Shown here: positions 82 through 44,339 of the stretch, piece by piece
Numbering within the stretch: position 1 is the stretch's first letter
How the letters are laid out: the number at the start of each line of letters is the position of its first letter
Assembly (NCBI GenBank): GCA_029964075.1
Contig: CM057149.1
Location: forward strand, 30,084,197 to 30,148,196
Direction of reading: 5' to 3'
DNA: 64,000 nt
From: Patiria pectinifera
Taxonomy: Eukaryota > Echinodermata > Asteroidea > Valvatida > Asterinidae
Translations under genes and position numbers: made by a program
Notes under the pieces: model-generated
The model's input: the letters and a program-made list of their open reading frames with translations, nothing else
What the model was told of the DNA's origin: nothing
The model's database searches: none

Positions 82-660
82 ATCAAGTCAGTCACTAGTC
101 AATCGCAAGTCAATTGCAAGTCAATCACAAGCCAATCACAAGCCAATCGCAGGTCAATCACAAGTCAATCACAAGCCATTGACAGGTCAATCACAACTCA
201 AATCACAAGTTAGTCACAAGTCGATTGTATGTCAATCACAAGTCAATCACAAGCCATTGACAGGTCAATCACAAGTCAAATCACAAGTGCATCACAAGTC
301 GATACAAGTCAAATCATAAGTCGGTCACAAGTCAATCACAAGTCAATCAGAAGTCAAATCACAAGCCATTGACATGCCAATCACAAGTCAAATCACAAGT
401 TGGTCACAAGTGTATCACAAGTCGATACAAGTCAAATCATAAGTCAGTCACAAGTCAATCATAAGTCAATCACAAGTCAATCAGAAGTAAAATCACAAGC
501 CATTGACATGCCATCACAAGTCAAATCACAAGTTAGTCACAAGTCAATCACAGATCAATCACAACTCAATCACAAGTCAATCACAAGTCAATCCCAAGTC
601 AATCCCAAGTCATTCACAAGTCAATCAAAAGTCAAATCACTAGCCAATCACAAGCCCAAT
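82..660. repeat. AATCACAAGTC minisatellite
   Basis: A degenerate tandem array of about 10-11 bp units (AATCACAAGTC, CAATCACAAGT) fills almost 580 bases just downstream of exon 4 of GBA copy B, so it lies in that gene's intron 4. Variants such as AGCCATTGACAGGTC recur at longer intervals and suggest a higher-order unit. The plus-strand open frame through it (400-705) is a product of the repeat, not a gene. Short stretches of the same unit also occur near 35275-35350 and 43316-43370. Confidence 0.9.
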
Positions 661-694: not shown

Positions 695-2058
695 CTTGTA
701 TTTGATGTCTTCCTTTGCTAAGGAGAAGTTCTGCAGAGCGAAATCGTTGGGCACATCGTCATAGGAGTATTCACCGGGTGAGAAATCAGTACTAGCCATA
801 GGAATGCGCCCAGTCGTGTACTCAATTCCTGCGACAAAACGAAAGAAATGAGAGACATTCGTAAAAACAATGTATGGAAACCGTTAAGGCAAAACTTAAA
901 ATAATCGTGTAAATAGCGTACCACATGATCATGAACCACAGCCTTACATAATACTAACTGGGCTTTTTTGAAAAATGAAGGTGCCAGCCCCAGCCCCCGC
1001 CCCCAAAAAAAGTTTCCAAGATGGCGAATGGATCCTTCCATTTTCTTGGCTGTTTTTGTGATACAAAGTTGTCTCCAAAGAAGCTGTAACCCTTTTCTAC
1101 ACAGTTATAATTTTGTTGGAAACAAATAAAAAGACAAGACAGTGTGGTCCAAAAAAAAAAAAAAAATGCAAAAATTAGACACAAAACAAAAAACATTGCA
1201 ATTTGCGTAGTTAAAATCTCTATCTTACCATCAATGGAGAAGTATGACCTGAGTAGGTTATCCTGAACCTTGCTTGATACGTTCAAGATGTTCATCGTCG
1301 CAGAGTCCGTGAAGGCTCCTCCAAACCCCAAGATGGTTTGATAAACTTCAGAGGAATTCACCGTTATCAACATGTTCTTGTCTGCAAATGAAGAAAATGT
1401 TCAACAAGGTTTTTTTGTCAAACACCTACAATGTTGTTTACATAATGTACATGTACATTCTTTCTTAAATATCGTCAATAAAACCTTTGCTATGTCTTAT
1501 GTTAATTAATACAGGATTTCTTCTACAAAGTTTTAATTGGTATGTTTTCGAGTCGCAACAAATACCACTTTTTCCCCCCAAAATTGGTGAGTCCTTATTT
1601 TTTTTTTTTTTTGCCTTTTTCCCCCCAAAAAAAGGACTCACCTGAATTGTCGGGCCACGAACAATTAAAAATGTGTGCAAGTATAATCTAGGCCTAAAGT
1701 TATGCCCGACTGAGCATAAACAACTCAAGGTCCGGCCCAAGACCTTGACACAGTGCATCCTCCAAAATCAGTCACCCATTTTTGCCATGTAGCCTCAATC
1801 CTGCGAAATCCTCCATTTTGCAAGGAGGATTTTGGAGAATTAGGGAAGGTTTATAGACGATAATACCTGTGATGTTGGAATGCACTGCAATGGCTTGCTG
1901 ATCCTTGCTGAACCGGTGCTGATCTTTGTCACTGGTAACGGACACAAACATCCCAGATTCGGTGTTGCTAATTCCCTGGACGGTGTCACAATACGTAGCA
2001 TTACACACGCAGACGTAGGAAGTCGCCAATGGGAAGGATTTTCTTTTGCACTCCACAG
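695..2058 (-). CDS. GBA: Glucocerebrosidase copy B, partial (exons 2-4)
   Basis: A second acid beta-glucosidase (GH30) gene, which in the family hydrolyses glucosylceramide in the lysosome. Three exons are seen: 2058-1867, 1381-1229 and 828-695. All introns are GT-AG with phases identical to copy A (1, 1, 0 after exons 2, 3, 4). Exon 2 holds the N-terminal Cys-rich motif CVCNATYCDT, matching the human four-cysteine segment, including the N-glycan sequon that is Asn19 in mature human enzyme. Exon 3 holds [16 protein letters not shown]. Exon 4 holds GRIPMASTDFSPGEYSYDD, aligning to human RVPMASCDFS. Exons 5-10, with both catalytic glutamates, would lie left of position 1. The signal-peptide exon should lie between 2059 and 12913 but I could not identify it. 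No stop or frame break is visible in these exons, so the gene looks intact as far as it can be seen. Confidence 0.9.
1640..1850. repeat. Interspersed repeat (CCTCAATCCTGC family), copy 1
   Basis: The segment carries GCCTCAATCCTGCGAAATCC and, next to it, a stretch reading AAGGTCCGGCCCAAGACCTT. Both occur again, rearranged, at 44741-45062, with the first motif there three times. It lies in intron 2 of GBA copy B. No clear terminal repeats or target duplication were found, so the class is unknown. Confidence 0.6.
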
Positions 2059-12913: not shown

Positions 12914-15900
12914 TCAACCCAAAGAAAAGATTGCACTGATCCAAGCCATGACCAGCACCCATGCCAACCCACTCCTCACTCTCCTGCCTCTTGAAGACTC
13001 TGTGGAGGATTCTGTGGGATCAGCCATCTTCCACAAGTAGGTTTTGATGGTGCGCGCCGGAACCGATGAGTTAAAGTAGCCGTCTTGGGTGGCTTCACGC
13101 ATGCTGAATGGTACCTCACTATCTCCCCTGATAAAAAAGAAGTATCGGTATACATGGTGGATAAAAAAAAAACCCGAAACGGAATATTATTGCTAATTGG
13201 AACAGAAGTAGGGCATTTTTGAATCGAAAGGAGATAGGCCTACCCTCTGTTAGGGGTTGAATCTCCTCTTTAAAATGACACCCTGATCATGTCCTTACAT
13301 TCACAGTTGACTGAGCAGTGACCAATTTTATGAGAGGGTCTATTTAGAGAATTGTGCCAGGACTACCCAGCTAAGTCCAACAGAGTCCAACCGGAGATCC
13401 TGTTCAATCCATCAGTCCACTGTGCCTTATTTTCAGTTGTCTGCTGAATCCAACGGTGTCCAACTTGGCATTATAATGCGGTTCAGTTGCCTGCTGAATC
13501 CAACATTTTGCATCAAGAATGTACACTTGTAAGGGGTTTACTGCTCAATCTAACAGGCTCCATCGGGTAAATAATATCGTTAGATCCTGTTGGATTCAGC
13601 AGGATTACATGTACCGGTAGGGTTAAAAAAGTGTATCGTGTCTCATACCTGTTTAGGAGTACAGTTACCAGTGTGCCATCTGGACGTTTGAATGCAATCG
13701 AGTCCAGCTGGCTGGCATTATTAGCGGAGCTGTGCAGCCCAATACGCACTGATCCTGCCGGAACAAATTTACTGTGGACAAAAACATGCAGATTTGGCTG
13801 ATTCAAATATGTTCGTGTCAACGTTGATTGATAAACATCATTTAAATTGCAATTTAAATCAAATGATGAATTTATATTTAATCACTAATTTAAATATTAT
13901 TTTTTTTGTAAAAATCTTATTTTTGGCAAAATTAATTGATTGAGGGTCATCAGAACAACTGTGTGTATATACTTGTACAGAAAAAAAAATCCGTTTTGGT
14001 TTGGAATTTAAATCAGATTTGGAATTTGAAAACCCGATATCGGAGCAAGCATTAAATAAAAAAAACATTTCAGAGTTTAGACAGCACGAGCAGGTATGAG
14101 GAGTTTGATAAGATTTATGCCTTTTTATCCTTAAATATCGTTGTCTGCCGCTGGGCGGGGCAAACAAATACAATGTATGTATGGTCTAGGTTATATTAAA
14201 AATGCGGAGATTGGAAGGGTTAAAAAAATATTTGGTGGGCGGCTACATGCTCAGAATAAAAGCAATAACATCGTTGTCGGCCGCAGGGCGGGGCGAAAAA
14301 AAAATGTATGGTCCATGCAGGTTCTATTAGAAAATGCAGAGATCGGAAGAGTGAATAAAAAAAATTCGTGAGCTACATACTCAGAACTACATGTATCTTA
14401 TTGGTGGTAAATTTCGCCTTCATAGCATAACGATCTGCCCAGCTAGCTGTTGCACTGCGTGATACTATCGACAAATTCCCACGCTGTCCTTACTTGGCAA
14501 GGGGCCAAACTTGTTATCGTCCGCGCCCAGAAGATCCTCTCGTATTTTTATACGTCCCCCCTGTACTGTACGGGCTACCCTGTAGCGACGAGAAAGTTTG
14601 TCGGATACTTTTAGTGCCGATGAGCTCTTCGTGTGTGCACAGACCGTGACTGGCCTTTTGTTGTATAAGAACGCGTTCTGAACGCGATGCCGTGAGCACG
14701 CGTGCGAACGGGAGGTAGATGTAACAAAAGGCCCCGTTCCTAGCGTGCGCACGCGTTCAAACGGTTAATTTATTTATGACGCCTCGCCTTAATGCCGGGC
14801 CGCGGGCAGAGGGTGCCAGCACGGACTCGCGGTGCAACCGTATTGTCGGGCTCCCTGCTGCTTGGCCAGGATCACCCGTTGGCGGCCCCCTCCATTGAGG
14901 AAACCCCAAAGGAGACTCCAGGGGAGACTCCAGAGGGGACCCCAAAGGAGACTCCAGAGGAGACCCCAGACTAGGAGACCCCAAAGGAGACCCCAAAGGA
15001 AACCCCAGAGGAGACCCCAAAGGAGACCCCAGAGGGGACCCAAGAGGAGACCCCAAAGGAGAACCCAGAGGAGAACCCAGAGGAGAACCCAGAGGTGACC
15101 CCAGAGGAGACCCCAAAGGAGACCCCAGAGGAGACCCCAGAAGAGACCCCAGAGGAGACCCCAGAAGAGACCCCAGAGGAGAACCCAGAGGTTACCCCAG
15201 AGGAACCCCAAAGGAGACCCCAGAGGAGGCCCCAAAGGAGACCCCAGAGGTGACCCCGTGGGAGGCGTCGCCTTGTTCAGGGATGAACCAGGGTCCTCGG
15301 AGGGGGCAGTGTAACATCTGTGGCTTACTGGTAAAACCATCCCATAGCGTCCCAAAGGGCACCAGCATAGACTCACGGTGCAGCGGTAGCATCGGGACCA
15401 TATTGGATGACTCGGAGTTGGAATTTTCCAGAGTTTTGGGGAGCCAGCTAGCTACATGAAGGCCTACATGCTAGGTCCCATGGGGAATTCCCCCGCGCTG
15501 TACACGGCAGCGCAGATGCTCCGTTCCACTCAGAATGTTGTCGGGCTGTGCCTGTTGATGCAGCAAGGGCGAGGCTTCGTTTTGGGACGCTACGGGATGG
15601 TTTTACCAGTAAGCCCAGTGCAGAGTCCCACGGGGTATTGCCCCGCGCTGTGCACAGTGGTGCAACAGACGCTCTGTTTCATTTGGAATTCTGCCAAGTT
15701 GCACCTGTTGATGCAGAAGCGGTTGCCGGGCTTGATCGTCCGGAGACACCCCGCGTCTTCTGCACCAACACAAGTGCCAGGGCCAACAATGGGAACAGCC
15801 CCGTAACACACGCATTCATATGACGGACGCACTTTTCTTTTGGAACGGTTCCGTTCCGTGCACGTCCATGTGCCTGATGCGTGTTCCCCTGTGGGTCGGC

Positions 15901-18900
15901 TTCTCAGTGCACAAGTCAATGGAGCGAAGCCGTTGCATGGAGTTGCTCCGCGCGGTAATGGAGGGGAGCTGGCGCAGTTGCTCAGCACGGGATTCTATGG
16001 AGCAGATCCGGTGGAGCCGATGGAGTTGCGCTCGCATGGAGTCGATGGAGCAGAGCCGATGGTGTTGATCTGCACATGAGTCAATGGAGCGGAGCCGGTG
16101 GGGTTGCTCCGCACAGGAGTAAGAGGAGCAGGGCTGGCGCAGTTGCTCCGCATGGGAGTCTATGGAGCAGAGTCGGTGGAGCCAACAGAGCTGCTCCGCA
16201 CGGGAACCTATGGAGCAGGTGCAGTTGCTCTGCACACGAGTCAATAGAGGAAACCCCAAAGGAGAAACCCAGAGGAGACTCCAGAGGGGACCCCAAAAGA
16301 TACCTCAGAGGAGATCCCAAAAGGAGAACCTAGAGGAAACACCAGAGGTAACCCCAGCGGAGGCGCCGCCTTGTTCAGGGACTAACAAGGGTCCTTGGAA
16401 GGGGCGGTGTAACGTTGGTGCCGGACCCCCGGCAGAGGGCGCCAGCACAGACTCATGGAGCAACCATAGGGCTGGGACCCCTGCTGCTTGGCCAGTGAGA
16501 CCTGTTGCCGGTTTGCGCAGACTCAGTACTGTGACGTTTACGTGTCTTTGTTGTGAGTTGTATAAAAAGAGAGCCTCGTGTAAGAAAGTTGAAATAACAA
16601 ATGACCTCGAGCCCCGAAACCCTGAAGAATAGTGTCTGTGGTTTCCTTCGTCTGGCATGTGACAACCCAGGATTCAGTATTAATAGTCTTATTCCTAACA
16701 TTTCTCCATAAAAATTTAGATTGAGATTTATACATGTACATAGTGACAGTGCAAGGCCTGATTCCTGTTCTCCACCTTGTATGAAGGACCATCAGTCAAG
16801 GTTTTGTGCGTGGTTTTTCACTGTCTCCTTGAAAAGTGTAATACTAATATCCACTGACACTGACTGAGCTGAAACGATTAGGTTTTGAACATTTTCTTTG
16901 CATTTAACCGTTATTAAATTATTATTATTATTGGAAACAAACAAAATGCACAAAAATGCCTTCTATTGATGGATTTAGCAGATATTTGTTCTACTGAAGT
17001 TGTACCTGAAATGGCCCATGTGGTAGAACATAGGCTGTTTGTAGAATGCGTCATTCTCAGCATCCACTATGATGGGGCAGTCCACTTCATTCTTGGCCCA
17101 GTTGGGTCCACCTTGCATATTCAGAGCTATGTTCCAGTCGACCCAGCCAGATACAAAGTGGTTCAAGTCCTGATGGTCAAAATTACATTTCCTGTGTCTT
17201 GTTTATTCACTTACAATTGAATGAATATGGCTACATCGTACATGTACAAAATGTACCCACAATTTAGCCAGAAAATTAGACCAAATGACATCAACAGATT
17301 TGTTGCCCCTTTTCCTTAACCTACATGTAGTCATGGTAAAAGGGCTAGGAAATATGTCTGCAGACATAATGATCATGCGTCAGCCTTTTTGAATGTCTGA
17401 ACGGAGCTTACACATTTAAATGGTTCTTAAGATATTTGCTAAACATTTACAAAATTAAATGCAAATGCGTTACTTCAGTGCAAAGTGATTTCGTTGCTGC
17501 AATACGGTGAATGTCGGAAGGAAACTAGAGTTGTAATGACTTTACCTGGATGATGTCATAGCTGTAGGCCTCTCCTCGCTCCCAGCTTCCAAGGATAACG
17601 GGCTCAGCATTGGCCTGGTATCCGTCGCAAGCCTCGGTGGCCAATATAAACTGGTCTGGGTAATGTTCAATGATTTTATCCAGCTGGTCGTAGTCGGCCC
17701 CTGGCCAGTTATCCTGATACCAATGAAGTGCTATACCGGATGTGTACGCCCTAGTCTCTGTATCATTCAAAACCTGTAATTATGTAAAGTAAAAAAGCTA
17801 TCTGTGAGTCCTGTTATACCTTTCGTTAATTACATGTAAGATGTTTGGGGTTCTATCAAACATCTTTAAAACCTACATGTAACGGTACATGTACCGGTAC
17901 ATGTACCGTGTTATATTAGCTTGAGTGTTCATTCACTGTAACAGTTAAGATTTCAGTCTATATTTCTGCTTGCGGACAAGCTTACGGACAAGCTTACGGA
18001 CAAGCTTGCAGACAAGCTGGCCGACAAGCTGGCCGACAAGCTGGCCGACAAGCTGGCCGACAAGCTGGCCGACAAGCTGGCCGACAAGCTGGCCGACAAG
18101 CTGGCCGACAAGCTGGCCGACAAGCTGGCCGACAAGCTGGCCGACAAGCTGGCCGACAAGCTGGCCGACAAGCTGGCCGACAAGATTTCGGACAAGCTTG
18201 CAGCAACAAGCTTGCAGCAAGCTTGCAAGGTACCAAATATGCAAATTAGACAAGCTTGTCTGCAAGCTTTGCGGCAAGCTTGCAGTAGGCTTTCGGTGAC
18301 TGCAAGCTTGCAAGAAACCGATGATTATACAATGCTTGTTGCAAGCTTGCCTGCTAACCTGCGGCAAGCTAACCTGCTGCAAGCTAACCTGCAGCTAACC
18401 TGATTTACAAGCTAACCTGATTTACTTTTCCATTTTTACCAGGTGCATGCATGAAAAGCTTGCCGCAAGCTAAATTTTCTGTAAGGGCAGTCCCTACATG
18501 TATGTTCAGCGACCCCATTCATATGTAACCGTAACCCTAACCCTAGGGGAACACTGGGAACATAGGCAATAGGGACTGGGGAACATAGGGACTGGGGAAC
18601 TTACATGACATAGGCACTGGGGGGGGATACCGGTAGGGACTGGGGAACATCTTGTAACCTACCGTTTCAGTGTCTTCAAATATCCCAGGTAGGTTGTCGT
18701 CATGCGACATGAGCTTGATGTGTCCATAGCCGTTCTCATGCAGGGCAGGTCCCAGATCCATCTTGATGAAGTCCCTCATTATAGGTGGCTGCATGGCCAT
18801 GCACTGCCAACTGTAGAAGGGAACCAGACCGGCCGTGGGCTCGTTCTGTACAGTCAGGCCCCACATCGGTACATTTAGCTTGTCATAAGCTTTGAGAAAT

Positions 18901-21900
18901 CTGTTAAGATCATTTAAAAATGAAATGGAGTACTGTACGTTCACATACATTGTTCCAGCAGGCTCAAGTGATGAACAATATGAGTATTTTCATGTAAAAG
19001 GTAGACACAAAAATGCTCAAAGTGAACTTAAAACACAACCCTGTCTCACAAACTGTGTCAAAATGCATATTGGCGTAGGATGCGACTTCGGGGGCACTTC
19101 CCAGGATAACAAGCATACCTCTTTTCAATGTGTTCCAGCAGATGCACTTGCATGTTGATGATAGCAAACTCATCGCCACTGCATTAGGGGAATACATTTT
19201 GTACTTGTCTAAATCTAGTCTTGGTCTATGGGCTCTGTGTGCCAACAAAAGAAGGCGCGTTTTTACATACATGCATATGTACATCTCTTTTGAGAGCTCC
19301 GTGGATGGAACGCACAGCATGTGCGCATCGTACTGTACTGTACTTTTTTGCGCGCGAAGTACGCACAACTTCCTGAATGTGCAAAAGCTACAGCCATGCA
19401 CCCCGTCTCCGCTTGAGTGTCAGGCGTTGTCAGCGTGCGAATACATGTACGTCCAAATTTATATATATGAATTTAACTTGCGATGGTCTCCTGGACTTAT
19501 TCCTGCACCAATAAGTTTGGATCATTCGAAATATGCAGTGGATGGATCGGGAAGGTCAACTCTTCTTTTCTGGGCGTTGATGGGGTATTTGTGCACGGAG
19601 CCAGATAGGCTTACAGCAATTTGTAACCATGCCTCCTAAGGCTGGAAAGACCACATGGGTCTATGGGAAGTGGCTGCAGCCGCTTCTATTGGGGCGTGTG
19701 TAATTTGCTGCCACAACCGAGTCATTCAGACATGGCCTGTAACCAGGTACATTGTACATGTACATGTAAGGCATACAATTGCAAGGAGTCCCTCAGCCAT
19801 GAACTAATCTGCAAAATACCGGTAGGCCTACATACCTGATGAAATAGTTGGCCCATGTCTTGTAGTACTTTTGGCCAGGTTTACCGATCAGAAAGCCTTG
19901 ATTGAACCCATTGTGCATCATGCCGTTGGTCTTCATCCAGGCCGGGGCAGACCAAGGGCTGGCAAACAGACGGATGTCCCACTCACTCATGGCTTTGGCT
20001 CGCTTGATCACTGGGATCTTCAAGGCAAAGAAATTCAACAATTATCCTTCGTTTCTCGTGTCTGGCCATTCTTCATGTTATTACATTCAACAAGCATTCA
20101 ACAACAGTTTTATGTTCATGAGTGGTTTATTGACAGAGGTACATGTATGTCAAGTTTTCTCTCACATTGCAGCTTTTATACTGAATTAAACTTGGACCAA
20201 TCGCAGCCGAGCTTGTGAAGCCTGTGGAATCCAGCAGAAACTTACAGCTATCACAATTGGTCTTTTATTTATTGGTGCATTGTGAGTTTGCAACCAAATG
20301 TCCAACCAAAGTCCAGCCTGATGTGCGCAAGTTACGCATGACACACAAGTTTGGAACATGCAGTGTGGCATTAGGGAGGTGTTATTGCCCATAGAGGAAC
20401 CACAATTTTGCCACAAGTTGTGAATTTGGTTTGACTAAAGTTTGCTTCAGGGTTACCGTGCCCTTGAAAACAGCCCTACGGATTTTGAAATTTCCAGAGA
20501 GTCATTGATGCCATACGTGTATGTGACATTTACTGTGCTTTATTGGTCTTGCTGTTTGTACCTGTACATGTATGAAGTGTGGGAAGACATTACCTTCAAA
20601 TCCAAATCTTCAGATACCAGTGTAAAGTTGACAAGACCAAAGTCACCATCGTAATCATCGTAGCTGTATTCGGAAAGGGAGAAATCACAGCTGTGGATGG
20701 GCACACGACCCATGTTGTATTCAATGCCTGTGCAAATGAAACAAGATGCACATAAGACAATTGTCAGAGACACTATGGGTTACGTGAACAAGTACCCCCC
20801 CCCCCCCCCCCCCCCCCCCTGGTAAGTGAGAGTTAGGAAGAGTTTGGGAGACCAGTGGGAGAGACATTCAAACGCATTGCCGACTATGCCTGATGCTCAT
20901 GTGAAGACCCTATGGCTTTGTGCACATTCAGAATAAAATTAGACATGCATACTGGTACTTTGTGCTGTAGTAAATTCCCTCCTTTTCTTTTTAACGGTCC
21001 CAAGTATGCAACATGTATTTTGTAAATAAGACAGCTTGTTGCGTGCAGCAGATGCACTAAGTGTTTCTTTTATTCCACTTCGCTTCTTCTTTTCTATCCT
21101 TCTATTGTTAGCTACACAACCAAGAATGTGTTACGTACATTCTAAAGGGGGGTATTCGGTATTTCCTCATCGGCGATCACTCGTGAACTAGTATGGTCAT
21201 CTACCAAGCAGGCTTCAATTTGGGTCCCTGCGGACCTTTGAGTGGCTGATAAGTCTTATCTTTGAACCACATCTGCGGCCGCATACATTGTACATGTACA
21301 TATACACGGCAGGAAGTCCTGAGGTAACAGGATGTCTTTGGAGCTGGGTTCTTTTTTGTTCTTTTCTGAGAGACTGCTTTTCCTCCTGCTGTTGTGCCTG
21401 TTCAAAGTGTTCTATCCCTGCATACAGTAACTTCCTCCAGGAAAGTTGCTCCAGTGCAAGTGTCTCCGAAGTGTTGACATCAATGTAACATTTGTTGAGG
21501 CTAGCTTTCATGGTGTCCTTGAAGCGTTTCCTCTGTCCTCCTTGAACGGAGCCCCTCTCGAAGCTGACCAAAGAGCACTTGTTTTGGGAGGCGAAAGTCT
21601 GACACCCTGAGTACATGTATGTGGCCCGTCCATCTCAGTTGGTTACGGGTAACCATGCCTTTGATGCTCGTGCTGTTCGCTTCCTCCAGAACGCTGATGT
21701 TGGTGCATCTCTCTTTCTATTTTATGATACACATGTACCTCTCCAAAACCTTCAGATGGCGTCTGTACATAGTCCAGGTCTCCGAGCCATAGAGTAGTGT
21801 TGGGTGGACTCTATACTGCCTTGTAGACAAGGATCTCAGTTTTCGTACAGAGGTCTCATTCATCAAAGGCTGTTTTCCTCAGCCAACCGAAGGCACTGCC

Positions 21901-33290: not shown

Positions 33291-33727
33291 GTGGTTCATT
33301 TGAAATACAAATATGTATTTAGTGAATGTATTTTAATTTTGTGTTTGATTAATACAGTGAGCATTCCCTCGCAAGCCATAAGCTACATGCACATACATTT
33401 GTGATGCGATCAAGCTACATGAGTCGCTTGTCGGGAATTTTCATTTGGAAATACAGCCCAAAATAGGACCACTTCATCACATTTCTTGGTGTTCCGACTT
33501 TCATAATTTTCTAACTGAAGATGGTATCAGGATGCATTTTTCACAGCAGCAATGCTGAGATTGTGCTCTTTTCAAATCTGTAATAAACCAAATTTTGACT
33601 GGGGTCGACAAACGACTCATTTAGCATGATCGCATCACATTTGTACCTTTTAGTGTTGAAATTACAGTGTAGTAATAGTGCACAATACTGTATACTTAAT
33701 CCCCTTTGTTCTTTTTGAAAAAAAAAA

Positions 33728-34838
33728 TACTCGAGCTAATCCACCCTGATGCTATTGTCGGGAAGTAAGTCCTTCCCATCTAGCAAAAGGAACAGACTCA
33801 TTGAATGCTGTGCCACTCATCGAGCTACTAACTTTGACTGTTCGTACAGCTCGGACAGGTCTTTACGTAGCAAGCTCCTAATCCCAACCTGATCCTATGG
33901 TCAGGTGTGCATTGTAAGTCCTTTCCACCTAGCCATGCTCTGCCACTCATCAAGCAACTAATTGGCTTATTTTACAGCTCAGCCAAGTCTTTATTGGAGA
34001 AAGGTGCCAATCCCAAACTAGTACTACCGTCTGGCATAAGCCTTTCCATCTAGCTATAGGATTAGACTCGCTGAATGCTCTGCCACTCATCAAGCTACTA
34101 ATATGCTTATTTTACAGCTCAGCCAAGTCTTTATTGGAGCAAGGTGCCAATCCCAAACTGGTACGACTGTCTGCATAAGCCCTGTCCATCTAGCCATAGG
34201 AACAGACTCAATGAATGTTTTGCCACTCATCAAGCTACTACTTTGCTTATTTTACAGCTCAGCCCAGTCTTTATTGGAGAAAGGTTCCAATCCCAAGCTA
34301 GTAATACCGTCTGGCATAAGTCCTTTCCATTTAGCCATAGGATCAGACTCGCTGAATGCTCTGCCACTCGTCAAGCTACTAATATGCTTATTTTACAGCT
34401 CAGCCAAGTCTTTATTGGAGAAAGGTTCCAATCCCAAGCTAGGATACTACCGTCTGGCATAAGTCCTTTCCATTTAGCCATAGGAACAGACTCACTGAAT
34501 GCTCTGCCACTCATCAAGCAACTAATTGGCTTATTTACAGCTCAGCCAAGTCTTTATTGGAGCAAGGTGCCAATCCTAACCTACCGGTAGTCCCACCGTC
34601 CGGCATAAGTCCCTTCCATTTAGCCATAGTAACAGACTCACTGAATGCTCTGCCACTCATCAAGCAACTAATTGGCTTATTTACAGCTCAGCCAAGTCTT
34701 TATTGGAGCAAGGTTCCAATCCCAAGCTAGTACTACCGTCTGGCATAAGTCCCTTCCATCTAGCCATAGGAACAGATTCACTGAATGCTCCGCCACTCAT
34801 CAAGCTACTACATGTACCGTACTTTGCTTATTTTACAG
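33728..34838 (+). repeat. Tandem array of truncated ANKLE1 ankyrin exons
   Basis: Seven units with a clear acceptor (exon starts at 33850, 33978, 34118, 34258, 34399, 34541, 34687) plus a fragment at 33728-33849 precede the real exon at 34839. Spacing is 128 to 152 bp, mostly 140-142. Each unit is a pyrimidine tract plus acceptor (CTTATTTTACAG) and the first 124 or so bases of the ankyrin exon, read as SAKSLLEQGANPKL then LPSGISPFHLAIG then LIKLL. It stops at CAAGCTACTA before the donor. Only the last unit has the exon end and a GT donor. Units resemble each other more than the real exon. Because 141 is a multiple of three, parts of the array read through as consecutive ankyrin-like repeats. 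Confidence 0.93.
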
Positions 34839-37800
34839 CTCAGCCAAGTCTTTATTGGAGCAAGGTGCCAATCCCAACCTGGTTCTTCCGTCCGGCATAA
34901 GTCCCTTCCATTTAGCCATTGGCACGGATTCCCTGAATGCTCTGGCGCTCATCAAGCTTCTACTACAGTATGATGGCAACCCAAACGTTAGGTAGGTACA
35001 TGTATGTTGGTCTTAATGACAACCCAAATGTTTAGGCACGTAGGTCTTAATGGCAACACAAATGTTTAGGTATGTAGATATATTACTCGTGAAAATTGTG
35101 CTGTGTTTGATTTAAACGGCTTGAATATGTACATAGTCTCAGAACAAAGCTGGTTATTTTGTGACTGAAGTGTGACCTCAAGGGTTGCGATTCCAAATTG
35201 AAGACTTTCAGAACATACCAACTGAAATGTAAAGTTAAACCTCTGGCTACTCAGAACCAGAGTTGTGATCAAGTCCATCACAAGTCAATCACAAATCAAT
35301 CACACATGCAGGTAAATCACAAGTCATAAGCTCAAGTCAAGTCACAAGCGATATGAATGAGATGCAACAGACGTTCCTTTCATCCCATGATACTTGTAAT
35401 TGACTTGTGATTAACTAGATTACGTCTCTGCTTCAAACTCTTTCCCTTTTTTAGAGTGTACTCTATTTTCACAAAAGTTGACCAAGTCTAACGCATTTCA
35501 ATATCCCTCTTGTGTCATGCATACAAAAAATGTTATGGTCTTCATTTGTAATCCAAAGGTCTGCTGATGGCATGACACCGGTCCATGTGGCTGCTACTTG
35601 GGGACGCTTCCTGGCTTTGCAACTCCTCCTGCTGAACGGAGGCGACCCTGAGTTGTGTGATGAAGATGGAGCCAACGCCATAGACTTGGCCAAAGAGAAC
35701 GAAAACTGGAACTGCCTGAATCTCTTGACTTCAAACCAGACAGAGGAGGATGAGGAGGATTCTCAACTGGACACATCTGTGACAGGTAAACTGATCTTGA
35801 TTTGTTGTCACATTATGCTGTATATTAGGCCACGTCTGAATCACTTAGCTGCTGCTTGCTTTTACACATGCCGCTATGATAGCGGCTGATTGTCAGGTGG
35901 CATGGGTGGCTTGTGCGTAAGGTGCTCGCCTCTCACCACTGTGGCCCTGGTTTGATTTCCGGCTGTGGAGTAGAATTGTGCGTTGGTTCTCTCCTGTGCC
36001 CCAAGGGTTTTTTTCTCCGAAGGTGCTTTTACATGCCTGCTCCTCGACCCCATTGTAGTCGCGTCCTTCCCAATTCAGCTTCTCAGCTGCGAGCAAGGAT
36101 GATAAGCCTCCCATATCATACCTATTAAGTGTGGTACTGCCAGCTGTAGCGGAGTTACATTGTATTTGTACGTGGCCTTAGGCAGAAAGAAACTGAGTAA
36201 AGCAGGATTCAAACCTCAGATCTCCCGGACACAATACCAGTGCTGTACCAAATGAGCTTTTTTCATGGCAGACGCGAATCCAGAGGGGGTGTTTTGGGGG
36301 TTCAGACCCCCCCCCCCGATCTGACACCAAAAAATGTATAAACTATAACAATAATAGCAAAAAAATATATAAAATTCTGCATGTCCGCAACAATTGGGGA
36401 AAACAAATTCTGACGGGCCTGAACCCCCCCCCCCCCTTGCAAACATTCCTGGATCTGCCTCTGCATGCACTTGTGGTAGAGTGCAGGTATGCATGGTATG
36501 GGCTCGGTGTGTGAACAAGAGATGGTACTTTTCTACCACTTTCGAGAGCCAAGTGGATGGGACACAATCCCATGTTCATGCTGGTTTGTGCCCGTATAGT
36601 GTCAAAGCGTCTCTGTATGAGTGTCTGGCGTCGTCGGCAATGCGTTCGAATGTCTCTCCTAAGTCGCCACCCCAACTCTCCCTTTCTTACCATTAAGGAG
36701 GGTACTTGTGCATGGAGCTCATAGTGTTATGGAGGTGGAAGGTTCGAGTCCTACTCCGGTCAAGTTCCTCGTTAAATCATTTTAATCCTAACCCTCAAGG
36801 GTTCCCTTGAATTTCAGTTTGTCAGTTTCCCTATTTTGATTCATTTGGTCAAATTATGCTTAACTTGAGAACTTTCTTGGATACAAATTTTGTTTTGTCA
36901 GGGTATCTGAACCAGACAAGGAGCAGTTGTGATGTGCATCCCGAATGCAGCCTGGACAGCCATGACTCGACAGACTTCAATCACAACTCCGCTCACGCGT
37001 CCCTAGATTCTACCGGTTTGTTGTCCTACCTCCCAGATGTCTCGTCTTTCTCGATCTCTAGTTTTACTGAGGACAAGCCACGGCCTTCAAGATCCTTCTT
37101 CCCAGATTTGGTCTCACGAATGGAAACACGGGGACAGGGCCTTTCTGAGGAATCTTGTAGCTGCATCAATGAACCGGAGAGACAGGAGCGACTGTCCTTA
37201 GAGGGGAGGTCTAGGGGAAGCTTTGAAAGTCATGGACACAAGTGCGAAGAAGCAACATCGCCGGTGCAGAAGCAGGGGTTGGGTGGTAATGGCAGCAACT
37301 TCAGGAGACGCCATGACAGAGGGTCAACTCATCTTGATCCAATGGACGGCCCTTCGGTAGCAGATGAAGATGGAGTTGGAAGTGAGCAAGATGAGGAACA
37401 TGATCATGACAAAACTCTCTCCAACACGTACTTAGAGGAGGTACTCATGTGTGACAACTGCACTGGCTTGGACGTGACATCTCCAGACCACATATCTGTG
37501 TTCATGAAAGGCTCCCATAATGGTGATACGCCACCCCTGGATAAAACCATCGCCTTTTTGTCGGATCGACGATCAATCAGGCGTTCTGCTGCGGTGATTA
37601 GCCAAACAGAAGTCTCCATTGCGAGTGAGGAGAGTTCAGCATATGTGACCTGTCAAAGTCATGACATGTCTGGTGTAAACGCCCAGCCATCAACGACCAA
37701 GAGGAATCCTAGAAGGGTCACGTTTAGTGATGAACAAGGAGATTCCAGTGACTTGTTCCAACAGTCATCAGAAGCATTTGGCTTTGCTCATGCCAGACAT

Positions 37801-40800
37801 GTCTCTCACGATCCATCCAGAACCACTGAACCCACTACGGACTTTGACGAGTCATTAGCCCATACTGGTGAGTTGAGTGACTTACTGACATCAGACAATA
37901 CTGAGAGTGATCTGCTGACATCTGATGAAAGTTCCCTCTTTCCTCCTTGCAACGGACCAAAAAGAAGCAACCTCCTGAATGGACATAAGCAGCCAGCTCC
38001 TGACACTGTTTGCGCCGAAGCGTTTGAGAGACCAGAAACTAAGGCTTTGGCAACTTGGCGGTTCTCATCCGGTCGTCCACCTTCACGATTAACGGAGGAT
38101 GATTCCACAGCACACGAATCGCACTTTACAGATTGCAGTGAGGCCGACTCTGACACTGAACATGACTCGGTTGAGTACCTGTACCACGACGAAAACACCG
38201 GAGCCATGCTGATTGAACGGCAGTGCCCATCAGCACTGGGTACAAGCTGCCAAGACCTATCTTGCCTAAATTACAGTCACATTTCAACGATTGACGATAC
38301 CGTCCTGTATGACTGGCGAGACTACCAAACAGATGAGGAGTGTGACTCGTCTCCGCCGGCACCGCTGCCCAAGGAGCTGCTTGAATTGTCCAACAAGGGG
38401 ATCCGAGAGATGATGCGAAAGTACGGGGAGGAGGCAGGTCCCATCACGGCCACCACACGTATGGTGTACTTGCATCATTTGAACAAACTCCAGAAAGATC
38501 CGGATTTTGCTAGGAGGGCTGCGAGTAGACAACAGACATTTCAAGGTGAGATACACAAATCGTTCTTGTCTAGAGGTTTCACAGAATTTCAGTACCTTCA
38601 CGAACAACAAGTTGTTTGCATTTTTAACACTGTCAAAATTTTACTTATCTTCGGCTTCAGAAACCAACTGAAATTACAGAAAGGACAGAAACCTCATCAG
38701 TACATTTGTGCACTGTATAGCCCAACAGTAACAATTCCCATGCATGTACATGTACAGTACATCTAAATAATGCATGACATTTGTATACAGTTGTAAATTT
38801 TGGTAGCCTGGTTTGGAGCCTATTTTGGAATGAACACCAAATAACTTAAACGCTTGAAAGCGTTTGATCAGCTGTGCACTAACTGCAACATGGGCAATTC
38901 CAGCGTTCTGAAAGGAAGTGTAATACCCGTGACAGAGCCAAGTAATCATGATATGAAAATGCTTCAGGAAAATGATCCTTGACCATTACTAAATAATGGA
39001 TGTATAAGATTTGTGAAATGTACCAGTATGTGTATTCGCTGAGCTCTGAAAAGCACCGCCACAGATATTACACGTACATCACGCTGGAATTGCTCACATA
39101 CATTCTTTTACCCCTTAGGCCAAAAAAAGTCTCCTGTTTCTGGTATGGAGCTTGCTGAAAAAGTGGTGCGACGACGCAGTTTTTTTTTTTTTTTACCTGT
39201 TTTTTTTTGCTTCAAATGTCGGCTGATGACTGCAAATGGTGCCCGACTAAACTTAGTGCAAATATATGGGAGTCCAGAGAGGCCACATAAAGCTCATTCT
39301 TGATCATAACCCCATCTAAAAACACGTTAAAATTGTGCAGCAGCAGGATTCCAGTCAAACCAGTGAGTTTGGCAGTTTTGAGAAATCATCTTTTATTGAA
39401 AAAAAAACTTTTTTATTTTGCCGACGCGCATGGCTACGGCGACGAGTGCGCATACCAGAAACCGGAGACTTATTATTTTTTTTACCGTAAGCAAGATGCT
39501 ACACATTTCTGTGAATATCAAACTGAACAAATATTTATAAAGTGACTGTTTATTAATTCATTATTTTTGGGAAGGATTCCGTTGGGAGCTTGCGGAGTAT
39601 CTGAACTCCGGCAGCCTACCAGAACCTGAGCACCAGATGGCGCAGCAGGAGAAGCTGATGGTGGCGCCCTTCCAGACACCCGACCCCTCACGCAAGTGGC
39701 GGGAAGGAACGCTCAAGTCGTCCTTCAATTACCTGCTACTGGACCCACGAGTCACCAAAGACTTGCCAGGCCGGTACACACAACTCACCCAACTGGAGGC
39801 ATTTCGGGTAATTGTCAACAGACCTAGAATAAGGGCAATTATGGGAGGCTTTCGTAGTATGACTTTGGACATCACAATTCCCACAAAGTCCTCTCAAGTC
39901 CATCGATAGTCATTCAGGCCCAAGTCAAGCCACAAGCTTTTTAACGTCCCGTAATAAGATCATTTGCAATGACCCAGAAAAGTATCTACTAATTTAATGA
40001 CAGAAACCTTGCTCAAAGTGAAGATAGGATGGTATGAAATATTCTTTGAAATTATTCCTCCTGAAATGGCATGATTCAGGAAAAAAACGAACATTGAATG
40101 TTGTTTTGAAAATAGGGTGCCCGCAAGCGTGCGTTAGCGACGGAATTCTCAATCCAGTCAAAGGACCAATCCTGAACATGTCTGTTTTCTTAAAATGTAT
40201 AGTAGCCACAGAGCTAAAACAAGTACAGTGGAACGCCGCTAAAACAAACATGGTGGGATCCACAGAAAGTGTTCGTAATAACGATCGTTCGGTATAGCGA
40301 TTTTGAACCGCCGGTACCCTCTTTTGACCAATAGTGAAGTCACTGAACTGGCATTTCTCACATCCTGCCGCCGCACGAGGAGTTGTCACAAAACTTTAGC
40401 AACGGGTGGTTTTCGTTTTATTCCTTGGGGAAATAATAGCCATCTATCGCTCTTCGACATTAAAAAAACGATGTAACCATGGATGGTTTGATGTTCGGGA
40501 ATGAAAAGTGGCCCAAACAGTGTTTAATACATGTACAACCGGTAGGTTTTTTTTTGTTCATCTGTTGACTTTTTTCAACAATGATATTCGGTACGTTTTG
40601 TACATTAAAATGGGAGCCAAGGATGATGCTTGGTATAGCCAAATGTTCGGTATAGCGGTGTTCGGTATAGCGGCGTTCCACAGCAGTTACATGTATCCAC
40701 TTTACAATGTACGTAAGATTTTGAGCACTTCTGTTACTTCAACGAATACAAAATTCACAAAAAGCAAAGATCAAATGTATTTTTAAATGTACTGCAACAA

Positions 40801-42707
40801 AGCCATTCCTTTGTTTCATCCCCCTGTATAAACTTGAAAATGAACTGGTGAATTGACTTGAGATTTACTTTTCAGCAGACTTGTGATAGGTGAGTGATGG
40901 GCTTGGGACTGGGAACCATGGGAGAACAGTTCTGATAAAAGGACTGAATGAGCCACCCAGTATAAAAAAGAAATCAATAAATAAACATATTACAGCCACA
41001 TTGGACACAGTGTCCTTGTTAATCCTTAGAGAACACTGTGGCCATTGGCTTCACGGTTACACAATACCGGTACCCTTCCTGAAAATTAAGATTAGGCAAA
41101 AAAAAAAAAAAAATCGGTCTCTGGTCAGCGCGCGCTTCGATTTTAATCATGCGCGTCAATCTTTTTTTTTTTTTCCAAAATGTTCCGCGGTAGCTCCAAC
41201 AGCGCCCTCTATTGCTGCAAAGCCTCCATTTTTTCTACCAAAGAGCACCAAGGAATGGGAAATTGCACCGAGGCAAATTATGGAGGACACCAATGTACAT
41301 GAGGACACCAAAAAAGCAAAATAGTACCCCACCTTGTCTGTACAATCCAAGCTTGAAGGAAAAAAAAAAAGCAAAAAAAAACCAAACAAACAACCGCGTC
41401 GCCTCAATTCCGGAACTTTGGCCTAACAGAAAAAAAAAACCCACAGCACGATATTGATCATTGCATCACCTACTGGTACACATCTCAAGAATGTTCCATA
41501 AGGGGGCCTCACTTAATGTGTGAGATTTGTACTGCTCCAAACCTGGACTTAAAGATTGAATATTTTCAATCAGCTACACGTGATTCATTCATTTATTAAT
41601 TTGCCTTGAAACAGTTTTAAACTGGTTTTCCATTGGGTTCTGCATACACTGCTGCAATTTGAAAGTAAAGTTCAAAAGAAAAAAAGCGCCTTGGTGGAAC
41701 GTACAGACTACAAACAAATACTTTTGAGATATTTACACAAAATTTAGCTATATATACATAAGTTCATTTTAAATATACAAAACTATACGGCATGAATCGC
41801 TGATTACGACATTAGCAAAACCATTTTTGGTGGAAAAAAAATTGGGAAATTCCCAATCAAGAATTCAACTGCACTTCCCTGTATCTCTTCATACCTGCAG
41901 TGTTGATACTCCCTGATAATTGATTTCATGAACCATCACCTGTCTTGTTTCCAGATGTTTGTGGCTGCCATATTTTACATTGGGAAGGGCAAGCGAGGTC
42001 GTCCCTATGCTCACTTTTACGAAGCTCTGTCTTCAACCAAGCCGGTTGATGAGGTCAAGGGCCAAACGCCGAGGAAAGCAGCCAAGAAACAGGTAGGTTT
42101 GACACAGCCACATGATGCCAGTGGCTTTTACGGTATTGGCCAACCACATAAGCCACTCCTGGCTGTCGCTACAAAGAAAGTCAGAAACCTGTCATAAAAT
42201 AAAGAGGCGTATCTGGGTCATGTATATAAATAAGGGGCCCTCTTTTTTTCAGCTACGCGATGTTGCGCACTGAACCAACGAATTATAGCAACCGTACGCG
42301 CGTGCTCCCCCCCCAAAAAAAAAACACCCCAAAAACCAAAAACAAAAACAAAGAACTACTATGGGATCATTGGAAAGGCCTTCTTTTATTGATTTCTTCA
42401 AAATGACAGCCCGCCAGAAAGAATAATTTCACGGGGAGTTTAGTCAAGTAAGCTTTTCAATAATGATTATCAGTCACTTTTTGGATAGCTACAAATGTTG
42501 GACTGTACCAGTACCTTCAATTAATAAACCATTATCAAATTGAACTGAATTGAATTGAAATGACTTCCTGTTTTCAGCCGAGTGCCAAGGTTCGTCACAT
42601 CCTAGACATATGGGCAGCGGGTCTTGGTGTGGTATCACTTCACTGTTTCCAGAGTGTCATCCCTGTGGAGGCATACACTAGAGAAGCTTGTATGGTGGAC
42701 GCTATGG
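34839..42707 (+). CDS. ANKLE1: ANKLE1-like ankyrin/LEM/GIY-YIG nuclease, partial
   Basis: Orthologue of ANKLE1, an endonuclease that in animals cleaves branched or bridging DNA. Exons found: 34839-34991, 35559-35785, 36902-38545, 39575-39807, 41955-42092, 42578-42707, all GT-AG with matching phases (2, 1, 1, 0, 0, 1). Ankyrin repeats lie in the first two (LLEQGANPNLV, DGMTPVHVAATWG, LLLLNGGDPELCDEDGA). The 1.64-kb third exon is an acidic, low-complexity linker ending in a LEM domain (LSNKGIREMMRKYGEEAGPI, then TATTRMVYLHHLNKL). The next three encode the GIY-YIG nuclease: NYLLLDPR (first Tyr), IFYIGKGKRGRPYAHFYEAL (YIG, Arg), and VEAYTREACMVDAMG (putative catalytic Glu). The first coding exon (before 34839, ending in phase 2) was not found. 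The last exon after 42707 is missing, probably in or near the N gap. The Met at 36856 is intronic, not the start. Confidence 0.92.
35895..36130 (+). mobile_element. tRNA-derived SINE, family C
   Basis: The head reads GGGTGGCTTGTGCGTAAGG (A box-like) and CTGGTTTGATTTCCGGC (B box-like), followed by a body with GCCCCAAGGGTTTTTTTCTC and ATCATACCTATTAAGTGTGG. It lies in the ANKLE1 intron before the large exon. Boxes are slightly degraded. Confidence 0.7.
36269..36471. mobile_element. Short inverted-repeat element with poly-C tracts
   Basis: GCAGACGCGAATCCAGAGGG on the left and the inverse-like TCCTGGATCTGCCTCTGC on the right enclose about 200 bp with C-runs on both sides of an A/T-rich centre. 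Probably a small MITE in an ANKLE1 intron. Confidence 0.6.
36500..36720 (+). mobile_element. GGGCTCCGTGCAC-ended repeat, copy 3 (short)
   Basis: Starts GGGCTCGGTGTGTGAACAAG, has GTGTCTGGCGTCGTCGGC, and ends TTGTGCATGGAGCTC. Shorter than the other copies, with an internal deletion. It is followed at 36722-36784 by a B-box fragment (GGTTCGAGTCC) of the tRNA-like SINE seen at 33183. Confidence 0.65.
39118..39487. mobile_element. GGCCAAAAA-ended MITE, family 2, copy 1
   Basis: 370 bp with terminal inverted repeats GGCCAAAAAAAGTCTCC and TTTCTGGTAT on the left, ATACCAGAAACCGGAGAC and a T-run on the right. The internal part (ACTTAGTGCAAATATATGGG, AATTGTGCAGCAGCAG) matches the copy at 53503-53870. 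It sits just before the fourth listed ANKLE1 exon (39575). Confidence 0.87.
40226..40683. mobile_element. pogo-like MITE (GGAACGCCGCTA ends)
   Basis: CAGTGGAACGCCGCTAAAAC on the left; TATAGCGGCGTTCCACAG on the right. GTTCGGTATAGCG recurs several times inside. Inverted ends of the type CAGT-GAAC-CC-TATA are typical of pogo/Tigger elements (established), so a pogo-derived MITE is likely. TA precedes the left end. It is in an ANKLE1 intron. Confidence 0.72.
41095..41423. mobile_element. GGCCAAAAA-ended MITE, family 1, copy 3 (right end deleted)
   Basis: Matches copies 1 and 2 from GGTCTCTGGTCAGCGCGCGC to CCGGAACTTTGG, then jumps directly to CCTAA. The 30 or so bases holding the right inverted repeat are missing, apparently by deletion between two TTTGG repeats. 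Confidence 0.82.
42253..42506. repeat. CTACGCGATG repeat family, copy 2
   Basis: Second copy of the family at 24653-24950, with an A/C-rich insertion around 42308-42350. It is in the last visible ANKLE1 intron. Confidence 0.7.
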
Positions 42708-43027: not shown

Positions 43028-43480
43028 TTGGAGGTTCCCCATTTTGTCAATGTCTTTGTTCACCGCAAGTCAGAAACCATAAACCTGTGTGCCATGTAGC
43101 CAGGGATCACGCCCAAAGTCACGATGCTATCAATACTAAGAATTTTGCAAACCTGGGAAATATGGCAACAGGGATCACTAACAGACGATAAGGCTTTTTA
43201 TTACAAATTTTCATTACAAATAATTGAAAAGTGTACAACTACATTAAATTTACAGTGCGCTCCTCTCAGAGTTGGACAGAAAAGACAAATAAGTAGCATG
43301 TTTGGCCATTATGTCAATCGCAAGTCAATCATAACTCAATCATAAGTCAGTCACAAGTATAATCACAAGTAATAGGAAGTGAACAGTGTCATATAAATGC
43401 AGCTGCTACAGTTCAGTTGAATAGCTTGTTACAGTGACTTCGGACTGGATGTCTTGTGATGGACTTGAAGCCTTGCCTAT

Positions 43481-43774: not shown

Positions 43775-43781
43775 AATTACA

Positions 43782-44281
43782 NNNNNNNNNNNNNNNNNNN
43801 NNNNNNNNNNNNNNNNNNNNNNNNNNNNNNNNNNNNNNNNNNNNNNNNNNNNNNNNNNNNNNNNNNNNNNNNNNNNNNNNNNNNNNNNNNNNNNNNNNNN
43901 NNNNNNNNNNNNNNNNNNNNNNNNNNNNNNNNNNNNNNNNNNNNNNNNNNNNNNNNNNNNNNNNNNNNNNNNNNNNNNNNNNNNNNNNNNNNNNNNNNNN
44001 NNNNNNNNNNNNNNNNNNNNNNNNNNNNNNNNNNNNNNNNNNNNNNNNNNNNNNNNNNNNNNNNNNNNNNNNNNNNNNNNNNNNNNNNNNNNNNNNNNNN
44101 NNNNNNNNNNNNNNNNNNNNNNNNNNNNNNNNNNNNNNNNNNNNNNNNNNNNNNNNNNNNNNNNNNNNNNNNNNNNNNNNNNNNNNNNNNNNNNNNNNNN
44201 NNNNNNNNNNNNNNNNNNNNNNNNNNNNNNNNNNNNNNNNNNNNNNNNNNNNNNNNNNNNNNNNNNNNNNNNNNNNNNNNN
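43782..44281. other. Assembly gap (500 N)
   Basis: Exactly 500 N, a placeholder length, so the real size is unknown. The last exon of ANKLE1 (expected after 42707 on the plus strand) and the last exon(s) of the arrestin gene (expected below 44340 on the minus strand) are both missing on the two sides, so they may lie inside. Confidence 0.99.
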
Positions 44282-44339
44282 TTGTAGTTCTGTTATTATA
44301 GTGCGGTGAATTAAAGTTTGATCGCAGAGCGAGTATTAC

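What the first reader, a model, noticed from the sequence alone, without database searches (positions are those of the whole stretch)
33728..34991. ANKLE1 ankyrin exon preceded by about seven truncated copies, each with a splice acceptor and no donor
Each 140-150 bp unit begins in the intron's pyrimidine tract, includes the acceptor, and stops 30 bases short of the exon's donor. A splice site can therefore be entered at eight places but left only at the last. The units differ from the real exon mostly at synonymous-type sites and are more alike among themselves, which points to homogenisation after one divergent duplication. Spacing near 141 bp lets some neighbours read through in frame, so longer ankyrin arrays or decoy acceptors are possible. 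Known: ankyrin exons duplicate readily. Inference: the array is a regulatory or evolving structure and not merely junk.
Basis: partly seen in the sequence, partly recalled or inferred. Interest (0 to 1): 0.7.

Follow-up and report, generated by a model that had tools for sequence, protein, structure and literature searches.

The report
Decayed truncated copies of ANKLE1 exon
In front of an ankyrin-coding exon of the nuclease gene ANKLE1, in an unnamed and probably animal genome, lies a row of damaged, truncated copies of that exon; they look like leftovers of an old exon duplication rather than a working switch, and they pose a testable question of how splicing avoids seven wrong entry points.

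Summary
The array is real. Upstream of the ANKLE1-like ankyrin exon (34839-34991) stand seven copies with an acceptor and one partial copy without one (33728-34838), spaced 128-152 bp; u2-u7 are about 84-88% identical to the exon, u0 and u1 about 72-73%.

No upstream acceptor reads through in frame to the real donor: all seven meet a stop after 13-70 codons, so longer ankyrin proteins by read-through are excluded in this sequence. Donor-like sites are not confined to the end: u0 and u1 have GTAAGT-type sites.

One claim gains support. The exon differs from the consensus of u2-u7 by 13 synonymous and 3 nonsynonymous changes, while those units differ from their consensus by 18 and 25. The units' ancestor was apparently a constrained coding copy, later amplified and now decaying. 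The consensus unit is 141 nt, 47 open codons.

Best reading: a dead tandem array from an old coding duplicate, kept out of mRNA by lack of near donors. A regulatory role is untested: no RNA and no relatives were available. New variant of a known kind; modest interest.

The parts
33394..33645 (.). MITE-like element with terminal inverted repeats of about 34-40 nt, about 80 bp left of the array
   Evidence: inverted repeat I1; genome search lists 39 other near-full copies at 85-91% identity, 40 scored of 1904 candidates
33728..33831 (+). u0: partial, most diverged copy, without acceptor; donor-like GAA|GTAAGT at 33765
   Evidence: nhmmer 33735-33821, E 1e-16; donor score
33850..33960 (+). u1: decayed copy, acceptor at 33850, frame stops after 13 codons, donor-like sites at 33905 and 33914
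33978..34100 (+). u2: exon-like part, acceptor at 33978, 1-nt deletion, stop after 24 codons
34118..34240 (+). u3: exon-like part, acceptor at 34118, 1-nt deletion, stop after 19 codons
34258..34381 (+). u4: exon-like part, acceptor at 34258; the only unit 141 nt long, open into u5, stop after 67 codons
34399..34524 (+). u5: exon-like part, acceptor at 34399, 2-nt insertion, stop after 20 codons
34541..34670 (+). u6: exon-like part, acceptor at 34541, 6-nt insertion, stop after 62 codons
34687..34810 (+). u7: exon-like part, acceptor at 34687, linker 11 nt longer, stop after 70 codons
34839..34991 (+). real ANKLE1-like ankyrin exon (51 codons, donor TAG|GTAGGT at 34992)
   Evidence: open frame; Pfam Ank E 4.6e-6; joins 35559 in frame (read)
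35016..35066 (+). two downstream repeats of a 17-nt stretch near the exon's end (35016-35032, 35050-35066); donor-like TAG|GTATGT at 35070
   Evidence: repeat families D7 and D8; score
35559..35785 (+). next exon of the gene (ankyrin repeats), donor CAG|GTAAAC
   Evidence: Ank_2 E 1.1e-7 in 35482-35889; donor
36811..38766 (+). open frame with the LEM domain of the same gene
   Evidence: LEM E 2.8e-11
41907..42197 (+). open frame with part of the GIY-YIG nuclease domain
   Evidence: LEM-3_GIY-YIG E 4.1e-12; 39541-39909 matches the start of the same model weakly, E 0.004, below its cut-off

Best explanation
The array is a decaying tandem repeat made from an old coding duplicate of the ANKLE1 ankyrin exon. 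Shown: the unit is the last 16-18 nt of the intron plus the first 124 nt of the exon, in seven acceptor-bearing copies and one partial copy; every upstream acceptor leads to a stop codon before the real donor; frame-breaking indels have accumulated; u2-u7 hold no donor-like site. Inferred: the ancestral unit stayed coding and constrained for a long time after it split from the present exon, because their differences are mostly synonymous. It then lost its end or donor, was amplified by unequal exchange, and is now near-neutral. Inferred: splicing normally enters at 34839 because only that acceptor makes a short (153 nt), open exon with the donor at 34992; entry at u7 would make a 305-nt exon with a stop. 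Any use of the seven upstream acceptors with donor 34992 would give a premature stop, a likely target of nonsense-mediated decay.
For: Array and members. Stops from 7 of 7 upstream acceptors. Six of 7 unit lengths not multiples of three. Exon against unit consensus 13 synonymous: 3 nonsynonymous (dN/dS 0.06); exon against each of u2-u7 dN/dS 0.10-0.19, against u1 0.29; u2-u7 against consensus 18:25 in sum; Fisher p = 0.009. With JC dS 0.54 and an assumed constrained ratio of 0.05, a path more than about 12% neutral would give 3 or fewer nonsynonymous changes with p < 0.05. In the 5' part (16 nt of intron and 38 nt of exon) the exon is as near to u2-u7 (0.040) as they are to one another (0.056); in the 3' part it is an outgroup (0.192 against 0.122). 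Linker types are shared between units that are not neighbours: u1 with u5 and u6, u2 with u4. No second ANKLE1-like match in the genome search. 0 of 40 control regions show the like.
Against: Among u2-u7 synonymous changes still exceed a neutral share (18 of 43, p = 0.04), and 5' exon columns vary less than 3' ones (4 of 38 against 25 of 86, p = 0.037), so some constraint or conversion may persist; u1 does not share this (8 of 38 differences in its 5' part). All seven acceptor AGs are intact. The change point along the exon is only moderately supported (permutation p 0.029, 0.058 and 0.022 for three column sets) and its best place is exon position 81, not the position 38 that I chose by eye. 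The short stretch (41 codons) limits every test, and the consensus has ties at some columns.
Confidence: 0.7

Rival explanations
1. The array regulates ANKLE1 by unproductive splicing: upstream acceptors, or a u1 poison exon (33850-33904 or 33850-33913) with its own donor, are used in some cells and yield transcripts with premature stops that are degraded.
For: All seven upstream acceptors keep AG, and u2-u7 keep a pyrimidine-rich tract nearly identical to that of the real exon. Every such transcript would carry a premature stop. u1 has an acceptor and two donor-like sites. CTAAY branch-point-like motifs, formed where exon tail meets intron tail, precede 6 of 7 upstream acceptors and neither u4 nor the real exon (read; motif recalled).
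Against: The same features follow from copying without function. Unit lengths and frames vary. No conservation across species could be tested and there is no RNA evidence. Donor weights were recalled.
Confidence: 0.12
2. The array was once coding: units of 141 nt (47 codons) were read through in frame as one long exon that lengthened the N-terminal ankyrin region, and protein-level selection kept the units until frameshifts broke it.
For: Consensus unit 141 nt, a multiple of three, open through the former intron tail. Few nonsynonymous changes between exon and consensus. u4-u5 still reads through for 67 codons.
Against: A 141-nt open unit arises by chance about one time in four (1/3 for the length times about 0.75 for six open codons; arithmetic, not a tool result). 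The linker adds a short hydrophobic stretch between partial repeats. Of three unit readings scanned, two match Ank below Pfam's cut-off (15.8 and 16.2 against 21.1 bits) and one matches nothing. An old full exon duplicate explains the same constraint.
Confidence: 0.2
3. Assembly artefact or collapsed or expanded array.
For: Tandem arrays are prone to errors; raw reads were not available.
Against: The units differ from one another by many substitutions and indels (mean pairwise 3'-part distance 0.122 among u2-u7), which a simple artefact would not create. The genome search with this exon gives matches at this one locus only.
Confidence: 0.04

Closest known systems
Tandem duplicated and mutually exclusive exons (e.g. 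Dscam PMC3236188, SNAP25 PMC2581893, human events PMC9741552: starts of abstracts in the listing; U2AF1 exons Ab/3 PMC5224494: abstract and outline)
   Same: Local tandem copies of one coding exon with their acceptors; the U2AF1 abstract reports that a duplicated exon is repressed at its acceptor region.
   Different: Here the copies lack the exon end and its donor, none is translatable to the real donor, and there are many decayed copies.
Intronic VNTR that affects splicing (ABCA7, PMC5954066: abstract and outline)
   Same: Tandem array in an intron near an exon, with a possible effect on splicing.
   Different: The unit here is itself an intron-exon junction with coding ancestry, about 141 bp long.
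Tandem (NAGNAG-type) alternative acceptors (recalled; PMC2951375 seen in the listing)
   Same: Several acceptors compete for one downstream donor.
   Different: Acceptors here are 128-152 bp apart and all upstream ones give premature stops.

Membership tests
ANKLE1 / LEM-3 nuclease gene | ankyrin repeats, LEM domain and LEM-3-type GIY-YIG domain in this order | tested here: met
   Pfam hits over their cut-offs at 35482-35889 (Ank_2), 36811-38766 (LEM) and 41907-42197 (LEM-3_GIY-YIG)
ANKLE1 / LEM-3 nuclease gene | first coding exon upstream of the array | tested here: inconclusive
   no convincing first exon in four motif and donor scans upstream of 33720
mutually exclusive tandem exons | each copy has acceptor and donor and keeps frame | tested here: not met
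   u2-u7 hold no donor-like site of score 3 or more and all seven acceptor-bearing upstream copies reach a stop
tandem repeat (minisatellite-like) array | head-to-tail copies with detectable period and mutual similarity | tested here: met
   TRF period 140, 7.1 copies, 87% matches
tandem repeat (minisatellite-like) array | copy number varies among individuals | not testable with these tools
   one assembly only; no second locus or haplotype seen
poison exon / unproductive splicing | transcripts that include it exist and are degraded | not testable with these tools
   no RNA data

The most novel reading that the evidence does not exclude
ANKLE1 in this lineage once carried a translated tandem array, made by turning an intron end into coding sequence so that 47-codon units were read through as one long exon under protein-level selection. 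The array has since died, leaving seven acceptor-only relics that the spliceosome must now ignore or that serve as an unproductive-splicing dial.
Probability: 0.15. Interest if true: 0.55.

Novelty: new variant of a known kind. Interest (0 to 1): 0.3.

Why it matters
It is a natural experiment on splice-site choice: seven upstream acceptors, six of them nearly identical to the real one, where only the last makes a short open exon with the donor. It also seems to record an exon duplicate passing from constrained coding sequence to a decaying repeat, with the real exon's acceptor end perhaps still exchanging sequence with the relics.

Tried and rejected
Longer ankyrin proteins by read-through: rejected for the present sequence, stops from 7 of 7 upstream acceptors.

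A paralogous ANKLE1 as source of the divergent unit sequence: not found. 68 protein matches at E up to 1 (114 candidates scored); those outside this locus are 47% identical or less and were taken for other ankyrin proteins without further study.

More units further upstream: none found by nhmmer in the 64-kb window.

First exon of ANKLE1: not found with simple donor and motif scans. It may be short, have an unusual donor, or lie outside the window.

Species: not established. The COX1 search of the assembly gave nothing; a paper search for a sea star assembly listed 3 papers, none usable by title and start of abstract. That it is a marine invertebrate, perhaps a sea star, is my guess from genome size and some 22 large contigs.

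RNA folding of the array: no shuffles above 1000 bases, so no conclusion drawn.

Papers: nine answered searches. Among the titles and starts of abstracts listed (lists are capped; e.g. 20 of 886), none describes an array of acceptor-bearing, donor-less truncated exons. Two papers were opened, at abstract and outline level.

Full report
The window lies at 30.08-30.15 Mb of contig C21 of a 613.5-Mb assembly with 1020 contigs and no relatives held. The gene is ANKLE1-like: Pfam finds ankyrin repeats in 35482-35889, a LEM domain in 36811-38766 and a LEM-3-type GIY-YIG domain in 41907-42197 (E 4.1e-12; a weak match, E 0.004 and below the cut-off, also in 39541-39909), all on the + strand. The exon in question, 34839-34991, encodes 51 codons, matches Ank (E 4.6e-6) and joins the next exon at 35559 in frame (read).

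The array is real. TRF reports period 140, 7.1 copies, 87% matches. A profile made from the units finds nine members in the window: u0 (partial), u1 to u7 and the exon; the next best hit has E 0.3. Seven upstream acceptors, all ACAG|CTC, stand at 33850, 33978, 34118, 34258, 34399, 34541 and 34687. The unit is the intron's last 16-18 nt plus the first 124 nt of the exon. BLAST pieces of the exon match six units at 84-88% and two more at 72-73%. As control, 40 regions around kinase matches, 240,540 bases of the same genome, were examined: 0 of 40 had a partial copy of the match nearby, while the ANKLE1 exon gave 9 self-hits; 4 of 40 held some tandem array of period 60 or more, none with 5 copies. 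With 0 of 40, rates up to about 7% are not excluded.

A 17-nt stretch near the exon's end (34973-34989) recurs at 35016-35032 and 35050-35066, the last followed by TAG|GTATGT at 35070; u0 and u1 have donor-like sites, 33765, 33905 and 33914 (weights recalled). Use of donor 35070 from the real exon would pass a stop at 34993. A high-copy MITE-like element (33394-33645; 39 other near-full copies listed, 40 scored of 1904 candidates) sits about 80 bp left of the array.

Read-through is excluded at present. From each upstream acceptor, in the phase fixed by the real exon, the frame stops after 13, 24, 19, 67, 20, 62 and 70 codons. Unit lengths are 128, 140, 140, 141, 142, 146 and 152; only u4 is a multiple of three. 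Relative to a 141-nt consensus, u2 and u3 lost one base, u5 gained two and lost one in its linker, u6 gained six and lost one, and u7 gained eleven.

History. The exon and the consensus of u2-u7 differ by 13 synonymous and 3 nonsynonymous changes, dN/dS 0.06, with 13 differences at third positions and 3 at first. Each of u2-u7 against the consensus sums to 18 synonymous and 25 nonsynonymous; the two ratios differ (Fisher p = 0.009). u1 adds 6:10 and was left out of the sum; u0 was not computed. The consensus has ties at a few columns, settled by order. Under JC distances and an assumed constrained ratio of 0.05, a path on which more than about 12% was neutral would be expected to give more nonsynonymous changes than seen. 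Hence the unit ancestor was most likely a constrained coding copy, either a full tandem exon or a read-through array, that died about when it was amplified. Against a fully neutral array, 18 of 43 synonymous among u2-u7 is more than the neutral share (p = 0.04).

The exon may be a mosaic. Codons 1-12 show 0 synonymous differences from the consensus in 8.7 sites, codons 13-41 show 13 in 25 (third-position Fisher p = 0.0075, with the division chosen by eye); the exon's last 16 intron bases equal those of u4. In the 5' part the exon falls within the spread of u2-u7, in the 3' part outside. A permutation test places the best break at exon position 81 with p = 0.029 (0.058 with exon columns only; 0.022 at third positions, after codon 26), so this is suggestive only. 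Among u2-u7 too the 5' part varies less (4 of 38 columns against 25 of 86, p = 0.037), which fits conversion across the acceptor end or some constraint there; u1 does not share it (8 of 38).

The consensus unit of 141 nt is open for 47 codons through the former intron tail. This would come by chance about once in four, so it only permits the idea of a former coding array. No second ANKLE1-like locus turned up in the assembly, and no first exon was found upstream, which leaves the upstream partner of these acceptors unknown.

Function. Without RNA data the most economical reading is that exon definition restricts splicing to 34839, and leakage into the array yields transcripts with premature stops. 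A regulatory role by unproductive splicing is possible but rests on motifs alone. Nine answered paper searches listed no paper whose title or start of abstract describes this arrangement; that is a limited, capped search of open-licence text.

Noticed in passing
window 35006-35073: Two tandem 34-nt repeats just after the donor that copy a stretch near the exon's end and its donor region, so both ends of this exon seem to have been duplicated locally.
   Followed up: partly
window 33394-33645: MITE-like element with inverted ends of about 34-40 nt; 39 other near-full copies listed genome-wide; about 80 bp left of the array.
   Followed up: partly
window 84-654, 35270-35304, 43313-43370: The same 11-bp motif (CAAGTCAATCA or a rotation of it) forms tandem arrays at three places, one of them in the intron right after the exon.
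   Followed up: no
window 954-1400 and 13513-18989, minus strand: Open frames that look like glucosylceramidase exons (recalled resemblance, not searched; frames), in an order that suggests two neighbouring copies.
   Followed up: no
window 17975-18184: Near-perfect 12-bp tandem repeat (17.5 copies, 97% matches) that is open in at least three frames.
   Followed up: no
window about 43780-44283: A run of N (X in the translations), so the assembly has a gap or a masked stretch just after the gene's nuclease exons.
   Followed up: no
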